DNA of 43,370 nucleotides from Candidatus Omnitrophota bacterium. Lineage in GTDB: Bacteria > Ratteibacteria > UBA8468 > B48-G9 > DTJG01. Both the position numbers and the translations under genes were made by a program. The stretch is from positions 1-43,370 of the forward strand of contig JAMDAS010000014.1 of NCBI GenBank assembly GCA_023484085.1. The letters run 5' to 3'. This document shows, piece by piece, positions 7,008 through 36,287 of the stretch; positions within the stretch are counted from its first letter, which is position 1; the number at the start of each line of letters is the position of its first letter. The notes beneath the pieces were generated by a model. The model was not told the origin of the DNA, searched no databases, and worked only from the letters and a program-made list of their open reading frames with translations.

Positions 7008-8261
7008 TTATCTTTGAGTTTTTTTGATATATTTATTTCTTAATGACTGTGTCTGCTCATATATATACCTGATAATATTTTCCTCTTCCTGTAAAAGCTC
7101 TGTATTTCTCCGTGCCATTGCACGCCGGGCTGTTTCAAGCATTGTTTCAATACCAAAACCCTTCATATATTTTCCATTTATAAACCAGATAAAAGAAGGG
7201 AAAAATTTAGGTAGTATCCCACCAGCCGTGATGTTACACATTATTCCTGTCACTGTTCCTGTATTTAATAACACCCCAATACTGGTTTTGGTGTGGTCCC
7301 CAATAAAAGAACCCACCTTTAAATCACCCGTATCAACCAGGCTGTCATTCACATAAACACTCACGGTGGAATAATCATTTTTAAGGTCACTATTGGTGGT
7401 TAAAGCCCCAAGATTGACCCATTCACAGACATAGGCATGACCAATAAATCCATCATGATATTTGTTGCTATACCCATGGAAAATACTTTCCTCCACTTCA
7501 CCACCAATTCTACAGCATGGGCCAAAACTATTGCCTTCTCTGATATTGGCACCAGGCATAATATCTGTTGCTTCACCAATATAACATGGCCCTTTTATCC
7601 GGGTATAAGGGAAAATTTTTACTTTCCTGTCAATAAAGATTGAACCGTCATTTGTATCCAAAACCACAAAAGGATGAATTTCTGTCTCCCCTGCTACGTA
7701 CAATCTGTCTTCAGGCCCATAGACAACTGTGCTTGAAGATACCTTTCCTTCTATACCTTTTTTACTCTTATTGTTAAAGTCAATCTCAAGCATTTCAGAA
7801 TTATAATGCACCAAATTCCATGGATAATTGATAATTTTGGCTTGTATAGAAATGGCAGGAAGTGATTTTTGAATTTCAGCAAGAAAAGAATAAAGGTCAC
7901 CGTCCCAGAATTTATTTATGGTCTCTTTACGGATAACTGCATAAACAATATCCCCTTCTGACGTAAAGATTGCTTCTTCTTCCAGAGTCAGATTATCCGC
8001 CGGTTTTGCCAGCCAGCGGCCATTTACCAGGACTATATCTTCTGTCCAAAAATCTTTTTTATTAACAGGCTGCCGGTATTTTTTTTGAATCAGTGGAGCA
8101 AGATAATCTCGTATCCATAAACCAGTTTCCATACCGTGTATTTTAGGCAGAATTTTTTCAAGAAGATTAGTTGCTCCGCATTTCAGCTCAAAAACAGGTC
8201 TTAAATAAGTCAGTGGTGTTAAATCCATCCATTTCTCATCTTCATAAATCAGCGCTTTCAT
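7008..8261 (-). CDS. Alternative GlmU-type sugar-1-phosphate nucleotidyl/acetyltransferase
   Basis: This protein of about 417 residues resembles the alternative bacterial GlmU family. An N-terminal nucleotidyltransferase-like domain starts MKALIYEDEKWMDLTPLTYLRPVFELK. A left-handed beta-helix acyltransferase domain (about residues 190-370) shows hexapeptide repeats such as IKGPCYIGEATDIMPGANI. The open frame runs further upstream, but the ATG at 8259-8261 has an AAGGA ribosome site and avoids overlapping pta, so I chose it. Known relatives are predicted to make UDP-GlcNAc or similar UDP-sugars from the sugar 1-phosphate and acetyl-CoA. Its neighbours nagB, pta and ackA supply amino sugar and acetyl units, and glmM lies at 18609. 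The substrate is inferred. Confidence 0.8.
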   Translation of the reverse strand: MKALIYEDEKWMDLTPLTYLRPVFELKCGATNLLEKILPKIHGMETGLWIRDYLAPLIQKKYRQPVNKKDFWTEDIVLVNGRWLAKPADNLTLEEEAIFTSEGDIVYAVIRKETINKFWDGDLYSFLAEIQKSLPAISIQAKIINYPWNLVHYNSEMLEIDFNNKSKKGIEGKVSSSTVVYGPEDRLYVAGETEIHPFVVLDTNDGSIFIDRKVKIFPYTRIKGPCYIGEATDIMPGANIREGNSFGPCCRIGGEVEESIFHGYSNKYHDGFIGHAYVCEWVNLGALTTNSDLKNDYSTVSVYVNDSLVDTGDLKVGSFIGDHTKTSIGVLLNTGTVTGIMCNITAGGILPKFFPSFIWFINGKYMKGFGIETMLETARRAMARRNTELLQEEENIIRYIYEQTQSLRNKYIKKTQR

Positions 8262-29790: not shown

Positions 29791-30936
29791 TCAAATACCC
29801 AGTCCACCTGACCAGAGTTGCTCAAGGAAGATTTTCCATGGAAGAACCCTTATACCAGAGTATATCTTTCGCGGCTCATCTTCCAACGATACGATGAAGC
29901 TTCGGCGAACACTGTGTTCTTCTTTTAATGCAAAGAGACCGCGCAGATCTCCTTCATGCACGCGGCGGGACCCCTTTACTTCTATTGCAACATCAAGTTC
30001 CCCAAGGATAAAATCCACTTCCATCCCGGTACTGGTGCGCCAGTAACAGATATCAAGTTCCGGATTGCGATACGCCCGGTATGTTCTTATTTCATGTAAA
30101 ATATACTGCTCAAAGGATTTACCGAATTCAGGAGTGCCTATTGATGGGCGTCGCCGGGAAAGATAATTGGTAACACCAATGTCAAAAAGATAGAATTTTT
30201 CCGTTTCTATAAGTCTTCGGTTGTAAGTTTTTCGCCACGGTGGAAGTCTGAAACCAAGGAACGTGTCTTCGAGGATATGAAAATAACTGCGCACTGTTTT
30301 TGTACTCACACCTGATTCGCGTGCGACATTGGTGTAATTCAATAATTCACCGGAAGTCAACGCCGCAACCCGAAGAAATTCTGCAAATGCAGGAATGTTC
30401 TGGATAAGTGCTTCCGCCGCAATCTCTTCCTTAAGATAGTCCCCCACATAAGCACGTAAATCCTGTATCGGATCATCGGCGAGAAAATGCGGCGGAAGCA
30501 AACCGCTGACCATGACATCTTCCAAGTTGAAACCTTTTGTTTCGTACAGGGACAAAGGGCACATCGTAAAACGCCATGCCCGGCCGCCGAGCAGATTGGC
30601 ATGACTTCTCCGTAATTTGCGGGCACTAGACCCTGTCATGAGAAAAGACTGTTTCTTATTCTCAATCAGCCAGTGAACTTCATTAAGCAGATCCGGCACC
30701 ATCTGGATTTCATCTATCAGTATTATGTTTTTATGCTCTGCATACCGTTCACGGAGAAGAGCAGGTCTTGATGCGTATTCCGCGAATACGTCGCTTTTCA
30801 ACAAATCTATAACGGGCTTATCAGGAAAAGCATAATGCAGCCAGTAAGTCTTGCCTGTTTTCCGTGGGCCCCACAAGAAAGCCGATTTACCGGGTGGCAA
30901 ATGAATATCCAGTGCTCTTTTATTTATTTGCTTCAT
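29791..30936 (-). CDS. AAA-type ATPase with DUF4143/PD-(D/E)XK-like C-terminus
   Basis: This 381-residue protein belongs to the large AAA_14-DUF4143 family. Walker A is GPRKTGKT (23-30), Walker B IILIDEIQ (71-78), and a sensor-like MTGSSARKL follows near 110. After a winged-helix-like linker (about 195-230) the C-terminus has a nuclease-type pattern EVDFILG...IAIEVKGS (Glu306, Asp308, Glu319, Lys321). These proteins are common, often horizontally spread, and have no firmly established function. The gene is visibly richer in G and C than its neighbours, which supports recent acquisition. The -10 hexamer lies six bases before the ATG, so the mRNA should be leaderless. Confidence 0.85.
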   Translation of the reverse strand: MKQINKRALDIHLPPGKSAFLWGPRKTGKTYWLHYAFPDKPVIDLLKSDVFAEYASRPALLRERYAEHKNIILIDEIQMVPDLLNEVHWLIENKKQSFLMTGSSARKLRRSHANLLGGRAWRFTMCPLSLYETKGFNLEDVMVSGLLPPHFLADDPIQDLRAYVGDYLKEEIAAEALIQNIPAFAEFLRVAALTSGELLNYTNVARESGVSTKTVRSYFHILEDTFLGFRLPPWRKTYNRRLIETEKFYLFDIGVTNYLSRRRPSIGTPEFGKSFEQYILHEIRTYRAYRNPELDICYWRTSTGMEVDFILGELDVAIEVKGSRRVHEGDLRGLFALKEEHSVRRSFIVSLEDEPRKIYSGIRVLPWKIFLEQLWSGGLGI

Positions 30937-31050: not shown

Positions 31051-31184
31051 AAGGGTGGCTAACGGGATTTGGCGCCCCTCGTTCCCGCTACACTCGGGGT
31101 CGGCCATTCGCTGAAGATTGCTCGTTCACTCACAATCTTCTTACTTCGCTCTATTCAAATCCCGTTCTTGGAAAAAACACAAAG
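31051..31184. repeat. Hairpin-rich element bounded by a duplicated tRNA-His 3' end
   Basis: Positions 31051-31070 repeat exactly the last bases of the tRNA-His gene and its 3' flank (31182-31201). Between them lie nested inverted repeats: AACGGGATTTG (31061-31071) with CAAATCCCGTT (31156-31166), GAAGATTG (31113-31120) with CAATCTTC (31133-31140), and CCCC (31075-31078) with GGGG (31096-31099). tRNA 3' ends are common integration sites, so this could be an att remnant; a multi-stem RNA or small mobile element is the alternative. No gene is supported in it. Confidence 0.6.
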
Positions 31185-31256
31185 GGTGGCTAACGGGATT
31201 TGAACCCGCTCCAAGAGAGCCACAGTCTCTCGTGCTGCCATTACACCATAGCCACC
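31185..31256 (-). tRNA. tRNA-His (anticodon GUG)
   Basis: The minus strand folds into a full cloverleaf. The acceptor stem is GTGGCTA/TAGCCAC, and a G at position -1 (31256) faces discriminator C73 (31185), the hallmark of tRNA-His. The anticodon arm AGAGA-CTGTGGC-TCTCT has U33 and anticodon GTG, and the T arm is GCGGG-TTCAAAT-CCCGT. The CCA end is not encoded. Its 3' 20 bases are duplicated downstream at 31051-31070. Confidence 0.93.
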
Positions 31257-31876: not shown

Positions 31877-32881
31877 ATGCTTGAACAATATCAGAAAAAA
31901 ATGGATGAAATAGAAGCATGGTGGAAAAGAGAAAATGAAAAACCCTGTTTGAATCATGTAAAAAGAAAACCCGATATACCTATCAATAATATAAATGGGA
32001 ATGTTTTTTGGCCGCAGGAGAATAAAAATCCGGATATTGACGGTTTGGTAAATTACTGGTTTTCTGAAAGTGAAGCGAATGAATATTATGGGGTATCTTT
32101 ACCTTCTCTCCCCCATCTATATGGAAACAGAGGAACACCAATGACGGCTTCTTTTTATCTTGGTGGCAAGGTTGTTTTGGGACAGGATACCGTGTGGGTT
32201 GACCCGGTAATTGAAAAATGGGAAGATTTTAAGATTAAATTTAATGAAAACAATTATTGGTGGAAACAAAGCATAGCCCTTTTAAAAAAATCACTGGAAA
32301 AAACAAATGGGAAATACTTTGTATGGATGCCTGACCTTGGAGATGCATTAACCTGTTTTTCTCTGCTCAGGGGCACAGAAAAACTTCTATGGGATATTTT
32401 GGAAAATAAAGAAGCAATAATACAGGCAAGAGATAAATTTATAGATTTGTGGAAAAAATACCATAGTGAATGCTGGAATTTATATAAGGATTACTGCCCG
32501 GGGGATATGAGCTGGTTAACATGGGCGCCTGGTAAGACATACGCCTGCCAGTGTGATTTTTCAACAATGCTTTCCCCCTCTTTGTTCACTGAACTGGTTG
32601 TTCCTGAAATTGAAAAACTTGGAGAATACCTGGATTTTATAATATGGCACCTTGACGGGCCTGAGGAAATAAGACATCTTGAAATTCTTCTTGCTCTGCC
32701 TGAAATTAAGGCAATCCAGTGGGTCCCCGGGGCGGGTAAACCAACAGCGGTTAACTGGATACCTATGTTAAAAAGAATCCAGGAAAAAAACAAGGCATTG
32801 ATTGTTTATGCATCTGATGAAAAAGAAAGGGATATTTTGACGAATGAACTACAACCCAATGGATTAAGAATATGTTACTGA
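31877..32881 (+). CDS. Uroporphyrinogen decarboxylase-superfamily protein
   Basis: This 334-residue protein resembles the UroD/MtaA-like superfamily. Visible features are CQCDFSTMLSPSLFTELVVPEIEKL near 225, IWHLDGPEEIRHLEILLALPEIKAIQWVPGAG near 255-285, and the barrel-like hydrophobic spacing between. True UroD makes coproporphyrinogen, while MtaA-like members transfer methyl groups from corrinoids. The N-terminal arginine-rich loop of UroD is not evident, so a methyltransferase or an uncharacterised role is more likely. No corrinoid protein gene is nearby. The first copy of a 25-bp direct repeat begins inside its stop region. Confidence 0.7.
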   Translation: MLEQYQKKMDEIEAWWKRENEKPCLNHVKRKPDIPINNINGNVFWPQENKNPDIDGLVNYWFSESEANEYYGVSLPSLPHLYGNRGTPMTASFYLGGKVVLGQDTVWVDPVIEKWEDFKIKFNENNYWWKQSIALLKKSLEKTNGKYFVWMPDLGDALTCFSLLRGTEKLLWDILENKEAIIQARDKFIDLWKKYHSECWNLYKDYCPGDMSWLTWAPGKTYACQCDFSTMLSPSLFTELVVPEIEKLGEYLDFIIWHLDGPEEIRHLEILLALPEIKAIQWVPGAGKPTAVNWIPMLKRIQEKNKALIVYASDEKERDILTNELQPNGLRICY

Positions 32882-32902
32882 AAATTGCACAAATTAATCA
32901 AT
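32878..32902. repeat. 25-bp direct repeat, left copy
   Basis: These 25 bases (starting CTGAAAATTGCACAAATT) recur exactly at 34118-34142, 1,240 bases away. The left copy includes the stop codon of the UroD-like gene. The two copies frame a single DUF4143-type ATPase gene, as a target-site duplication or recombination scar would. Confidence 0.9.
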
Positions 32903-32975
32903 GGCATTTGAGAAGTGATGATATCAATAATTTTATGATTTGCATTTATTCCGAAAATATGTTAAGTATACTTAC

Positions 32976-34112
32976 ATGATAGAAAGACCTTTCTGGGTGC
33001 AGCTCATTGAAAAAGGATGGAAAGAAACACCAATCGTATGGCTTGCTGGCGTTAGACGTTCTGGTAAAACCACTTTAGCCAAAAGCTTTGGCTCAGACAA
33101 AATTCTTTATATCAACTGTGATTTGCCCGCCACAGCTGACAGAGTTTCTAATCCGGAATTTTTCTATCGCAACTGCGATAAACCAATTGTGGTTTTTGAT
33201 GAAGTGCATCAACTCAAGGACCCCAGTTTATTACTTAAAATTGGAGCCGATGTTTTTCCGGAAATTAAAATACTGGCCACAGGTTCTTCATCGCTTATTG
33301 CCAGCCATAAGTTCCGCGATACTTTGACTGGCCGCAAACGATTGGTACGTCTTACACCTGTTCTTTGGAATGAATTATCTGCTTTTCACAATACTGTCTT
33401 GATTAAACGATTATATCAAGGCGGTCTACCTGAAGCTTTACTTTCTGAATCCAAAAACACTGGTTTTTATAGGGAATGGATGGATTCACTCTTTGCCAGA
33501 GACATTCAAAAGCTTTTTGCGTTTCGCAATCCAGACAAGTTTAATGCGCTCTTTGAGTATGTTATGAAACAAAGTGGCGGATTGTTTGAAATTACCCGCG
33601 CGGCTGGAAATTTGGGCATCAGTAGAGCCACTGTGGAAAATCATGTATTGGCACTTGAGGTAACCAATACGATTTCGATATTGAGACCGTTTCATGGGGG
33701 CGGTAAAAAAGAATTAATAAAAACACCTAAAATATACGGATTTGACACAGGTTTTATAAGTTTCTGCCGAGGGTGGGATCCTTTAAGAACAGATGACTAT
33801 GGAATCTTATGGGAGCACATGGTTTTAGAGTATCTCCATGCTCATGTGCCTAATCTACGTATTCAATTTTGGCGAGATGCTTCCGGACGAGAAGTTGATT
33901 TTGTAATACCGCATAATCGGGATCGTATAGACGCGATTGAATGTAAATGGACGTCTGATTATTTTAACCCGGCCTCGCTTAAAGTTTTTAGAACGCACTA
34001 TTCACACGGACACAATTATCTTGTATGTCCAATAAATGAACCGGGGTATTTTAGAAAAATTGCCGGATTGGATATATGGATATGCAGCCCTAATGACTTA
34101 TTTAGGGAATAA
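32976..34112 (+). CDS. AAA-type ATPase with DUF4143/PD-(D/E)XK-like C-terminus, second copy
   Basis: This protein of about 378 residues is in the same broad family as the gene at 29791 but only distantly similar. Walker A is GVRRSGKT (25-32), Walker B IVVFDEVHQ (71-79), and ILATGSSSLIAS lies near 98. The C-terminus carries REVDFVIP...DAIECKW, the nuclease-like Glu/Asp...Glu-x-Lys pattern. The frame opens at a TTG at 32940, but the ATG at 32976 gives the normal N-terminus. No good ribosome site precedes it; a TATACT hexamer ends three bases before the ATG. It stands alone between two exact 25-bp direct repeats and is probably a horizontally acquired cassette. Confidence 0.83.
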   Translation: MIERPFWVQLIEKGWKETPIVWLAGVRRSGKTTLAKSFGSDKILYINCDLPATADRVSNPEFFYRNCDKPIVVFDEVHQLKDPSLLLKIGADVFPEIKILATGSSSLIASHKFRDTLTGRKRLVRLTPVLWNELSAFHNTVLIKRLYQGGLPEALLSESKNTGFYREWMDSLFARDIQKLFAFRNPDKFNALFEYVMKQSGGLFEITRAAGNLGISRATVENHVLALEVTNTISILRPFHGGGKKELIKTPKIYGFDTGFISFCRGWDPLRTDDYGILWEHMVLEYLHAHVPNLRIQFWRDASGREVDFVIPHNRDRIDAIECKWTSDYFNPASLKVFRTHYSHGHNYLVCPINEPGYFRKIAGLDIWICSPNDLFRE

Positions 34113-34117
34113 AAGTG

Positions 34118-34142
34118 CTGAAAATTGCACAAATTAATCAAT
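34118..34142. repeat. 25-bp direct repeat, right copy
   Basis: Exact copy of 32878-32902. It lies between the ATPase stop codon and the promoter of the nifU-larE-mnmA operon. Removing one copy and everything between would join the UroD-like gene directly to that promoter. Confidence 0.9.
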
Positions 34143-34154
34143 TTATGCAATTTA

Positions 34155-34163
34155 TGTTATAAT
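34155..34163 (+). promoter_or_regulatory. Extended -10 promoter of the nifU-larE-mnmA operon
   Basis: TATAAT at 34158-34163 is preceded by TG at 34155-34156, an extended -10. The -35 region has no good match. The ATG at 34191 follows a run of six G residues serving as ribosome site. Confidence 0.55.
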
Positions 34164-34190: not shown

Positions 34191-34439
34191 ATGACGCTCA
34201 GGGAAAAAGTGGAAGAGGCTTTAAAAGAGGTGAACTGTTTTCTCCAGATGGAAGGCGGAAACTGTGAAATAGTTGATGTCACAGATGATGGGATTGTAAA
34301 ACTAAAACTCCAGGGGTCATGCGAAGGATGTCCTTTTTCCGAGATAACGCTCAAGATGCAGGTGGAAAAAATCATTAAGGAAAGAGTCCCGGAGGTAAAA
34401 GAAGTCATAAATGTTGAAACCGTTGAAGAAAAAGTTTGA
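34191..34439 (+). CDS. NifU C-terminal-domain protein, second copy
   Basis: This 82-residue Nfu-domain protein has Cys44 and Cys47 in GSCEGCPFSEIT. The frame runs further upstream, but the ATG at 34191 has a GGGGGG site and matches the family N-terminus. It overlaps larE by 29 bp and opens a sulfur-transfer operon. It may carry an Fe-S cluster or persulfide for LarE or MnmA. It differs from the copy at 26614 and is not a recent duplicate. Confidence 0.83.
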   Translation: MTLREKVEEALKEVNCFLQMEGGNCEIVDVTDDGIVKLKLQGSCEGCPFSEITLKMQVEKIIKERVPEVKEVINVETVEEKV

Positions 34440-35220
34440 AATACTGGAAAAAATCATCAGGGAATTGAAAAAATCTGCTGTAGCATTTTCAGGCGGGGTT
34501 GACAGTTCATTCCTTCTAAAATATTCAATAGATGTCCTTGGCAGGGAAAATGTTGTGGCTGTTATTGAAAAAGGTGAGCTTTATCCTGAAGAGGAGACTC
34601 AATCCGCCATAAAATTGGCTGAAGAATTCCAGGTTAAATATTTCATAATTGAAGCAGACCAGATGAAGGATACGTATTTCACACAAAATCCCGTTGACAG
34701 ATGCTTCCATTGTAAAAAAGACCTTTTTGGAAACATAAAGAAGATTGTTCCTCCTGATTTTTGCATTGTTGACGGCTCTAATGCAGATGACGTAAAAGAC
34801 TTCAGACCCGGGGAAAAATCAAAAAAATTATTCAACGTCCGTTCCCCATTACAGGAGGCAGAGCTTACAAAAGATGACATAAGAAAAATCTCAAAGGAAA
34901 TGGGACTCCCTACATGGAATAAGCCGTCATTTGCCTGTTTTTCATCAAGAATACCCTACGGAAAAAAAATCACCAGGGAAAAACTATCAAGAATTGAAAA
35001 AGCAGAAAGATATTTGAAAAACAAGGGATTCTGGCAGGTCAGGGTAAGAGATTATGGAAAAACCTGCAGGATAGAGGTTCTTCCTGATGAATTTGCAAAA
35101 ATTTTAAAAGAAAGGGATGAGATTGTAAAAGAACTCAAAAAAACAGGATACCTGTACATAACCCTTGACCTTGCCGGCTATAGGACAGGAAGTATGAATG
35201 AGATCCTTGAAAATTTATGA
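34411..35220 (+). CDS. larE: LarE-type ATP-dependent sulfurtransferase
   Basis: LarE inserts sulfur into pyridinium dicarboxylate to build the nickel-pincer cofactor first found in lactate racemase. This 269-residue protein has the PP-loop SGGVDSS, RCFHCKKDLF, DGSNADD and PSFACFSSRIPYG. Cys176 matches the position of the sacrificial cysteine of the Lactobacillus enzyme (known from the family). No larB, larC or larA is visible in the window, so the cofactor pathway is not proven here; a different sulfur acceptor is possible. It overlaps nifU by 29 bp and mnmA by 4 bp (ATGA). Confidence 0.88.
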   Translation: MLKPLKKKFEILEKIIRELKKSAVAFSGGVDSSFLLKYSIDVLGRENVVAVIEKGELYPEEETQSAIKLAEEFQVKYFIIEADQMKDTYFTQNPVDRCFHCKKDLFGNIKKIVPPDFCIVDGSNADDVKDFRPGEKSKKLFNVRSPLQEAELTKDDIRKISKEMGLPTWNKPSFACFSSRIPYGKKITREKLSRIEKAERYLKNKGFWQVRVRDYGKTCRIEVLPDEFAKILKERDEIVKELKKTGYLYITLDLAGYRTGSMNEILENL

Positions 35221-36287
35221 AAAAACGGGTTATTGTTGCAATGAGCGGCGGTGTGGATTCTTCAGTTGCCGCTTATCTTTTAAGGGAGCAGGGATACGAC
35301 GTAATTGGCATAACACTGAAATTATGGGATTCTGATTGTGAAAAACAGGATGGATGCTGTGGATTTTCAGGAATCATAGATGCAAAAAAGGTTTCAAATA
35401 AGATAGGAATCAGACACTATGTCCTAAATGCAAAAAAAATTTTCAGGGAAAAAATAATAACATATTTTATTGACGGGTATCTAAAAGGACAAACCCCAAA
35501 TCCATGCGCATATTGTAATAATTTCATTAAATTTGATTATCTACTTGAAAAAGCAAAAGAGATTTCATCAAAATTTGTCGCAACAGGCCACTATGCCAAC
35601 ATATTTTTTGACCCGCATAAGCAAAGATACGTTTTAAAAAAAGGTATTGATGAACAAAAGGACCAGTCATATTTTCTTTCACTGTTAAACCAGAAGCAGC
35701 TTTCCTCTATAATCTTCCCTCTTGCCAATCTGACAAAAAGACAGGTAAGGGATATTGCCAAAAAAGTTTCTCTTCCTGTTGCAGAAAAACCACAGAGCCA
35801 GGAAATCTGTTTTATCCCGGATAATGATTACGTAAATTTTATAAAAAATTTTAAAGGGCTCCAATCCATACCTGGTCCTATAAAGGATTTAAAAGGAAAA
35901 AATATAGGAACACATAGTGGTTTAATCTCATATACTATAGGACAGAGAAAAGGTCTTGGAATTTCGTCCGAACATCCACTTTATGTAAAAAAGATAGTAC
36001 CACGGAAAAATACAATATATGTTGCAGATAAAGAGCGTATTTATCAAAAAACATTTTACGTGAACAGTCTTAATCCTGTTTTCTGGAAAGATTTTCCTGA
36101 AAGGTTCAGGTGCAACGTAAAAATAAGACATAAAAATCCTGAAAGCCCCTGTTACGGAAAGCTCGTTGAAGATAATAAGATAAAGGTTACCATGAAACAG
36201 CCGCAATGGGCGCCAACACCAGGCCAATTAGCTGTTTTTTATAGAAAAGATACTGTACTGGGCGCCGGAATAATAGAGAAGACCTGA
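35217..36287 (+). CDS. mnmA: tRNA-specific 2-thiouridylase
   Basis: MnmA thiolates U34 of tRNA-Lys, -Glu and -Gln. The 356-residue protein has the PP-loop MSGGVDSSVAAYLL, the catalytic cysteines Cys97 in GQTPNPCAYCN and Cys198 in PQSQEICFIPD, plus ATGHYA and KDQSYFL. It is the last gene of the sulfur-transfer operon and ends 9 bp before the convergent mfd gene. Confidence 0.94.
   Translation: MKKRVIVAMSGGVDSSVAAYLLREQGYDVIGITLKLWDSDCEKQDGCCGFSGIIDAKKVSNKIGIRHYVLNAKKIFREKIITYFIDGYLKGQTPNPCAYCNNFIKFDYLLEKAKEISSKFVATGHYANIFFDPHKQRYVLKKGIDEQKDQSYFLSLLNQKQLSSIIFPLANLTKRQVRDIAKKVSLPVAEKPQSQEICFIPDNDYVNFIKNFKGLQSIPGPIKDLKGKNIGTHSGLISYTIGQRKGLGISSEHPLYVKKIVPRKNTIYVADKERIYQKTFYVNSLNPVFWKDFPERFRCNVKIRHKNPESPCYGKLVEDNKIKVTMKQPQWAPTPGQLAVFYRKDTVLGAGIIEKT

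What the first reader, a model, noticed from the sequence alone, without database searches (positions are those of the whole stretch)
32878..34142. Single-gene ATPase cassette framed by an exact 25-bp direct repeat
The 25 bases at 32878-32902 recur exactly at 34118-34142, enclosing only a DUF4143-type ATPase gene. Removing the 1,240-bp unit leaves the UroD-like stop codon directly followed by the nifU-larE-mnmA promoter. This looks like a recent insertion with a long target duplication or homology-based capture. No transposase or integrase is inside, so how such genes move is open.
Basis: partly seen in the sequence, partly recalled or inferred. Interest (0 to 1): 0.7.

Follow-up and report, generated by a model that had tools for sequence, protein, structure and literature searches.

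The report
Transposase-free single-gene insertion, 25-bp duplication
A single foreign gene for an ATPase-nuclease, from a family suspected of phage defence, was inserted between two host genes and left a 25-base duplication of host sequence at its ends; it carries no transposase, so it is a good test case for how such genes jump alone.

Summary
Confirmed. The 25-bp repeat is exact, is the longest exact repeat in the window, and occurs only twice in the genome. It encloses one gene (32976-34112), an AAA_14 + DUF4143 ATPase-nuclease that PADLOC calls PDC-S01, a predicted but untested single-gene phage-defence family. The only same-genus genome held has an empty site: the same upstream gene (81% aa identity) is followed after 79 bp by nifU-larE-mnmA, with no ATPase. 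Removing the insert plus one repeat copy from the window leaves 69 bp there. The gene's nearest relatives (72-62%) are in other phyla; relatives in the window's own order and class fall in another clade. Relatives share only about 45 bp of promoter plus the ORF, so that is the mobile unit. Best reading: horizontal acquisition by insertion with target duplication, a mode published for restriction-modification genes. What drives it is unknown. A few other DUF4143 genes have flanking repeats of other sequences, but most do not; in one case the two copies look like 3' ends of two different genes. The excess over control genes is weak once matched for isolated genes. In another genus the same cassette (93-97% identical) sits at different loci without repeats.

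The parts
32878..32902 (+). Left copy of the 25-bp direct repeat; starts one base before the upstream gene's stop codon (TGA 32879-32881) and joins native flank on its left
32903..34117 (+). Inserted DNA (1215 bp) absent from the empty site of the same-genus genome G001
32931..32975 (+). About 45 bp conserved in relatives from several phyla: promoter-like -35 TTGCAT (32940-32945) and -10 TAAGTA (32963-32968), then ATG; beyond -50 similarity is at chance level
   Evidence: -35/-10 assignment by eye
32976..34112 (+). ATPase-nuclease gene: AAA_14 + DUF4143, PADLOC PDC-S01, PD-(D/E)XK-like C-terminus (378 aa)
34118..34142 (+). Right copy of the 25-bp direct repeat; starts 5 bp after the ATPase stop codon and joins the native nifU promoter on its right
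31877..32881 (+).
34158..34163 (+). TATAAT, likely -10 of the nifU promoter; the right repeat copy covers its -35 region
   Evidence: by eye
34191..36287 (+). Downstream host operon: NifU-domain gene, larE-like gene, mnmA; same order in G001

Best explanation
A single-gene cassette (its own promoter plus a DUF4143/PDC-S01 ATPase-nuclease gene) was acquired from a distant bacterium and inserted between the upstream gene and the nifU-larE-mnmA operon. The insertion duplicated 25 bp of the host target, so that both the upstream stop codon and the nifU promoter stayed intact. Shown: the gene is foreign to the lineage, the related genome has an empty site, the repeat is exact and each copy joins native flank on its outer side. 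Inferred: the duplication arose by filling in a staggered or doubly nicked break into which the incoming DNA was joined, without transposase or terminal repeats ('insertion with long target duplication'). Guess: what makes the break is unknown; the cassette's own nuclease is one candidate, host repair acting on free DNA another. What keeps such genes is probably phage defence or selfish maintenance, also inferred.
For: Exact 25-bp repeat unique to this site. Empty site in the same-genus genome G001, 79 bp between the same genes against 69 bp in the window with the insert and one copy removed. No close ATPase copy in G001, best 30%. Nearest relatives in other phyla; the window gene lies in a 100/100 clade apart from copies of its own order and class. 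Only about 45 bp of promoter plus the ORF is shared among relatives. The two copies are identical although the same stretch is hardly alignable between the two genomes, so the duplication is younger than their split (inference). No transposase, integrase or end-to-end inverted repeat in the insert. The same family relocates as a 1.3-1.4 kb single-gene unit in another genus. Published precedent for R-M genes.
Against: The single 25-mer copy cannot be recognised in the diverged empty site of G001. Only one empty-site genome. Most DUF4143 genes have no flanking repeat, and the recently moved cassettes of G411/G416/G420 have none. The published duplications are longer (order of 100 bp). GC and GC3 of the gene are within the window's range.
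Confidence: 0.66

Rival explanations
1. Homology-based capture: the incoming DNA already carried a stretch matching the target (as a circle, or a fragment from a donor with the gene at the same place), and homology-assisted recombination left the two copies.
For: At L198 both copies encode the 3' end of ccmB and differ only at first and third codon positions (0 of 12 at second, p = 0.008), as between two functional genes; L152 has two different sirtuin 3' ends. Homology-facilitated illegitimate recombination is known in transformable bacteria.
Against: In the window the repeat is exact, short (25 bp) and mostly non-coding; the close relatives of the ATPase show no shared flanks beyond the promoter, so no donor with this flank is known.
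Confidence: 0.15
2. The gene was present in the common ancestor and G001 lost it by recombination between the two repeats.
For: Deletion between direct repeats would leave the same empty-site structure; G001 is the only other genus member held.
Against: The two copies are identical while the same intergenic stretch is hardly alignable between the genomes; the gene's relatives are in other phyla; no matching copy in the family members G002-G009.
Confidence: 0.07
3. The cassette was moved by a transposase or integrase acting in trans that makes a 25-bp target duplication.
For: Clean duplication with native flanks outside; none of the enzyme need be inside the unit.
Against: No terminal inverted repeats and no shared cassette ends among relatives beyond promoter and ORF; flanking repeats at other loci differ in length.
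Confidence: 0.08
4. Assembly artefact of the metagenome: two unrelated sequences joined at a shared word.
For: The genome is a draft metagenome assembly and the gene's relatives are all foreign.
Against: A 25-bp word shared by chance at both ends is very unlikely; the 25-mer occurs nowhere else in the assembly; the gene's composition is within the window's range.
Confidence: 0.04

Closest known systems
PDC-S01 / DUF4143 (AAA_14) ATPases
   Same: Domain pair, PADLOC match, ATPase plus PD-(D/E)XK-like domain, wide horizontal spread
   Different: Nothing in the protein; what is added here is a mapped insertion with junctions and an empty site
Insertion with long target duplication (Nobusato et al. 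2000, restriction-modification genes of Helicobacter pylori; read through PMC1643837, PMC3031569, PMC3874152)
   Same: Presence/absence between related genomes, insert flanked by a direct repeat of target DNA, no transposase, nuclease-bearing defence-type cargo
   Different: One gene instead of an R-M complex; duplication 25 bp instead of the order of 100 bp; the empty-site genome is about 80% identical, not a strain
Homology-facilitated illegitimate recombination (discussed in PMC2884548)
   Same: Foreign DNA joined to a chromosome with homology on one side; could explain gene-end duplications at L198, L152, L129
   Different: The window locus has an exact short duplication and no donor-like homologous flank

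Membership tests
PDC-S01 / DUF4143 ATPases | AAA_14 and DUF4143 domains over the curated cut-offs | tested here: met
   79 and 110 bits
PDC-S01 / DUF4143 ATPases | PADLOC PDC-S01 model | tested here: met
   PDLC04789, E 9.8e-53 over residues 2-351
PDC-S01 / DUF4143 ATPases | ATPase fold plus PD-(D/E)XK fold | tested here: inconclusive
   Model pLDDT 87; matches to RuvB/STAND ATPases and to McrBC and Can2/Cdn1 chains, but low overall TM-scores; D309, E323 invariant, K325 nearly
PDC-S01 / DUF4143 ATPases | Anti-phage activity | not testable with these tools
   The paper read reports validation pending for most PDCs
Insertion with long target duplication | Insert present in one and absent from a related genome at the same site | tested here: met
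   G001 empty site
Insertion with long target duplication | Direct repeat longer than usual transposon duplications, native flank outside both copies | tested here: met
   25 bp exact; shorter than the published order of 100 bp
Insertion with long target duplication | Exactly one copy of the repeat at the empty site | tested here: inconclusive
   Spacing fits one copy (79 against 69 bp) but the sequence of G001 is too diverged
Insertion sequence / transposon | Transposase inside and terminal inverted repeats | tested here: not met
   One ORF, AAA_14 + DUF4143; no inverted repeat joins the ends
Integrase-driven island | Integrase gene and tRNA or other fixed attachment site | tested here: not met
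   No integrase in the insert; the site is a protein-gene 3' end
Integron gene cassette | attC site next to the gene and an integron integrase | not tested
   attC folding not scanned; only 5 bp lie between stop codon and right repeat

The most novel reading that the evidence does not exclude
DUF4143/PDC-S01 genes are autonomous one-gene mobile elements: the ATPase-nuclease itself cuts the target with a wide stagger and drives insertion of its own promoter-gene unit, leaving target duplications of variable length and no terminal repeats.
Probability: 0.1. Interest if true: 0.88.

Novelty: new member of a known kind. Interest (0 to 1): 0.48.

Why it matters
PDC-S01 is described as the fourth most common defence family across prokaryotes (PMC12988326), and how such lone genes spread without transposases is open. 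This locus gives a clean insertion with both junctions and an empty site, and another genus (G411, G416, G420) gives recent relocations of a single-gene unit, so the break-and-join step and the role of the encoded nuclease can be tested.

Tried and rejected
Family-wide rule of flanking repeats: 14/177 DUF4143 genes against 7/524 controls (p = 6e-5) shrinks to 8/117 against 5/222 (p = 0.04) when only genes with at least 100 bp free on both sides are compared, and disappears at the strictest cut-off without the window and L277; several hits are dispersed or low-complexity repeats (L277, L210, L246). Not claimed. Twelve plasmid DUF4143 loci showed no convincing repeat. A conserved palindromic operator is visible by eye in some relatives (L076, L044) but weak in the window's clade, not claimed. 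Dispersed repeat: the 25-mer is nowhere else in the genome nor in viral contigs. Phage carriage: only 7 distant phage records and two IMG/VR contigs at 43%. Papers naming DUF4143: one, not about mobility as far as its abstract shows. Empty-site test for L240 in its genus was blurred by rearranged flanks and repeats. More empty sites for the window locus: nifU does not follow the homologous upstream gene in the other family and order loci held. Another L233/L241 difference (1.4 kb next to a DUF4143 gene) is two other genes, not a DUF4143 insertion.

Full report
OBSERVATION. The 25 bases CTGAAAATTGCACAAATTAATCAAT stand exactly at 32878-32902 and 34118-34142. Dinucleotide shuffles of the window never gave a match, even with three mismatches allowed. 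It is the longest exact direct repeat within 5 kb in the window; the next, 21 bp, is a piece of a tRNA gene. The whole assembly (906 kb, 27 contigs, 62.6% complete) holds no further copy. Between the copies lies one gene with AAA_14 and DUF4143 domains.

ANATOMY. The left copy starts one base before the stop codon of the upstream gene (TGA 32879-32881). The right copy starts 5 bp after the ATPase stop codon and runs into the -35 region of the nifU promoter, whose TATAAT is at 34158-34163 (by eye). So the duplicated stretch is what is needed to keep both neighbours intact. The insert itself is 32903-34117 (1215 bp). No inverted-repeat pair joining its two ends was listed. The upstream gene has no Pfam match even at E 10 and no PDB sequence match, so the label UroD-like is not confirmed. 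The right-hand genes are a NifU-domain protein, a larE-like protein (by order and NAD_synthase match) and mnmA.

EMPTY SITE. One same-genus genome is held (G001). Its contig C69 has the upstream gene (81% aa), then 79 bp, then nifU, larE and mnmA (83, 77, 78% aa) in the same order, without the ATPase. With the insert and one repeat copy left out, 69 bp remain between the same genes in the window and the two genomes align end to end. G001 has no close copy of the ATPase anywhere (best 30%). The intergenic sequence of G001 is too diverged to show the 25-mer. That divergence is also an argument: the two window copies are identical although the same stretch has changed beyond easy alignment between the genomes, so the duplication is younger than their split (inference).

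ORIGIN. The nearest relatives of the protein are 72% (a deltaproteobacterial MAG), 68% (Nitrospirae), 66% (Chloroflexi), then other Deltaproteobacteria, Actinomycetota, Elusimicrobia and Riflebacteria. In a maximum-likelihood tree the window gene lies in a 100/100 clade with these; the copies from its own order (G012, G027) and class (G033) lie in another well-supported clade. Of the DUF4143 genes of this genome, two have 73-75% counterparts in G001, as expected for shared genes; this one, the second one in the window and those of L039 and L040 have only 20-33% matches among the nine G001 copies compared.

MOBILE UNIT. Upstream of the ATG, 12 sequences from several phyla share about 45 bp with a promoter-like layout (TTGACA, 16-18 bp, -10, then ATG within a few bases); beyond -50 similarity is at chance level, about 0.25. 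Downstream nothing is shared. So the unit that moves is promoter plus ORF. Independent support comes from another genus: the same DUF4143 gene is 97% identical over 1298 bp in G411 and G416, and 93% over 1380 bp in G416 and G420, with flanks that are not alike. These cassettes have no flanking repeat, so a duplication is not obligatory or is lost. One of these loci (L232) carries a run of N near its left edge, so that edge is less certain.

OTHER DUF4143 GENES WITH REPEATS. With a fixed test (best local match between 200 bp upstream and 200 bp downstream, against shuffles), some other loci stand out, each with its own sequence: L064 (Nitrospirae, 76 columns, 58 identical; the right copy includes the start of a DUF6079 gene), L198 (87 bp, 75 identical; both copies encode the 3' end of a ccmB-like gene), L152 (32 bp; sirtuin 3' end), L129 (36 bp; 3' end of a Trm112-like gene, named by eye). 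The names ccmB, sirtuin and Trm112 are my reading of the sequences and were not run against a family library. At L198 the 12 differences fall at first and third codon positions only, as between two functional genes, which fits capture through a homologous flank rather than a drifting duplicate. Over all loci, 14/177 DUF4143 genes against 7/524 control genes pass 15 units above the null (p = 6e-5). Restricted to genes with 100 bp free space on both sides it is 8/117 against 5/222 (p = 0.04); without the window and one repeat-rich locus it is 5/113 against 4/215 (p = 0.16). I therefore do not claim a family-wide rule. The other DUF4143 genes of this genome show no such repeats, nor, convincingly, did twelve plasmid copies.

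FUNCTION. PADLOC assigns the protein to PDC-S01 (E 1e-52), a predicted single-gene phage-defence family described as an ATPase fused to a PD-(D/E)XK domain, fourth commonest in prokaryotes, with several transfers between domains; for most PDCs experimental validation is pending (PMC12988326). An AlphaFold model from 22 relatives has mean pLDDT 87; structural matches are RuvB-like and STAND ATPases and, among PD-(D/E)XK proteins (my knowledge), McrBC and Can2/Cdn1 chains, with low overall TM-scores. D309, E323 and C324 are invariant and K325 nearly so.

MECHANISM AND PRECEDENT. The pattern matches 'insertion with long target duplication', described for restriction-modification genes from H. pylori strain comparisons (Nobusato et al. 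2000, read here through PMC1643837, PMC3031569 and PMC3874152; Furuta et al. 2010 was not held). The present case extends it to a lone ATPase-nuclease gene, with a shorter duplication. What makes the staggered break is not established. That the encoded nuclease does it is attractive and testable, but nothing here shows it.

LIMITS. One empty-site genome, about 80% identical; draft metagenome assembly without reads; no closer relative; the control for repeats is approximate; the first repeat cut-offs were chosen after seeing the first sample.

Noticed in passing
window 31051-31071 and 31182-31202: A 21-bp exact repeat: the 3' end of tRNA-His (31184-31255, minus) is repeated 131 bp away; G001 also carries repeated pieces there. 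It looks like an attachment-site scar of an integrated element.
   Followed up: partly
window 29791-30936 (minus): A second DUF4143 gene, 2 kb away, with the highest GC of the window's genes (45.5% against 36% for the window) and no close counterpart among the G001 copies compared; no flanking repeat.
   Followed up: partly
L230-L245 (G411, G416, G420): A genus with up to 23 listed DUF4143 matches per genome in which near-identical cassettes (93-97%) sit at different loci; the best material for catching moves.
   Followed up: partly
L244:4851-6230 and L245:4757-6135: The shared unit carries four to five tandem copies of an about 20-bp element (ACTTTAGAATTTTACCTATG-like) upstream of the gene, like iterons or operator sites.
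   Followed up: no
L064, L111, L142, L149, L161, L039: DUF4143 genes of different subfamilies stand close together in tandem pairs at several loci.
   Followed up: no
L198:5767-5854 and 7138-7225: A second copy of the 3' end of a ccmB-like gene lies on the far side of a DUF4143 gene and differs only at first and third codon positions, as if taken from another organism's gene.
   Followed up: partly
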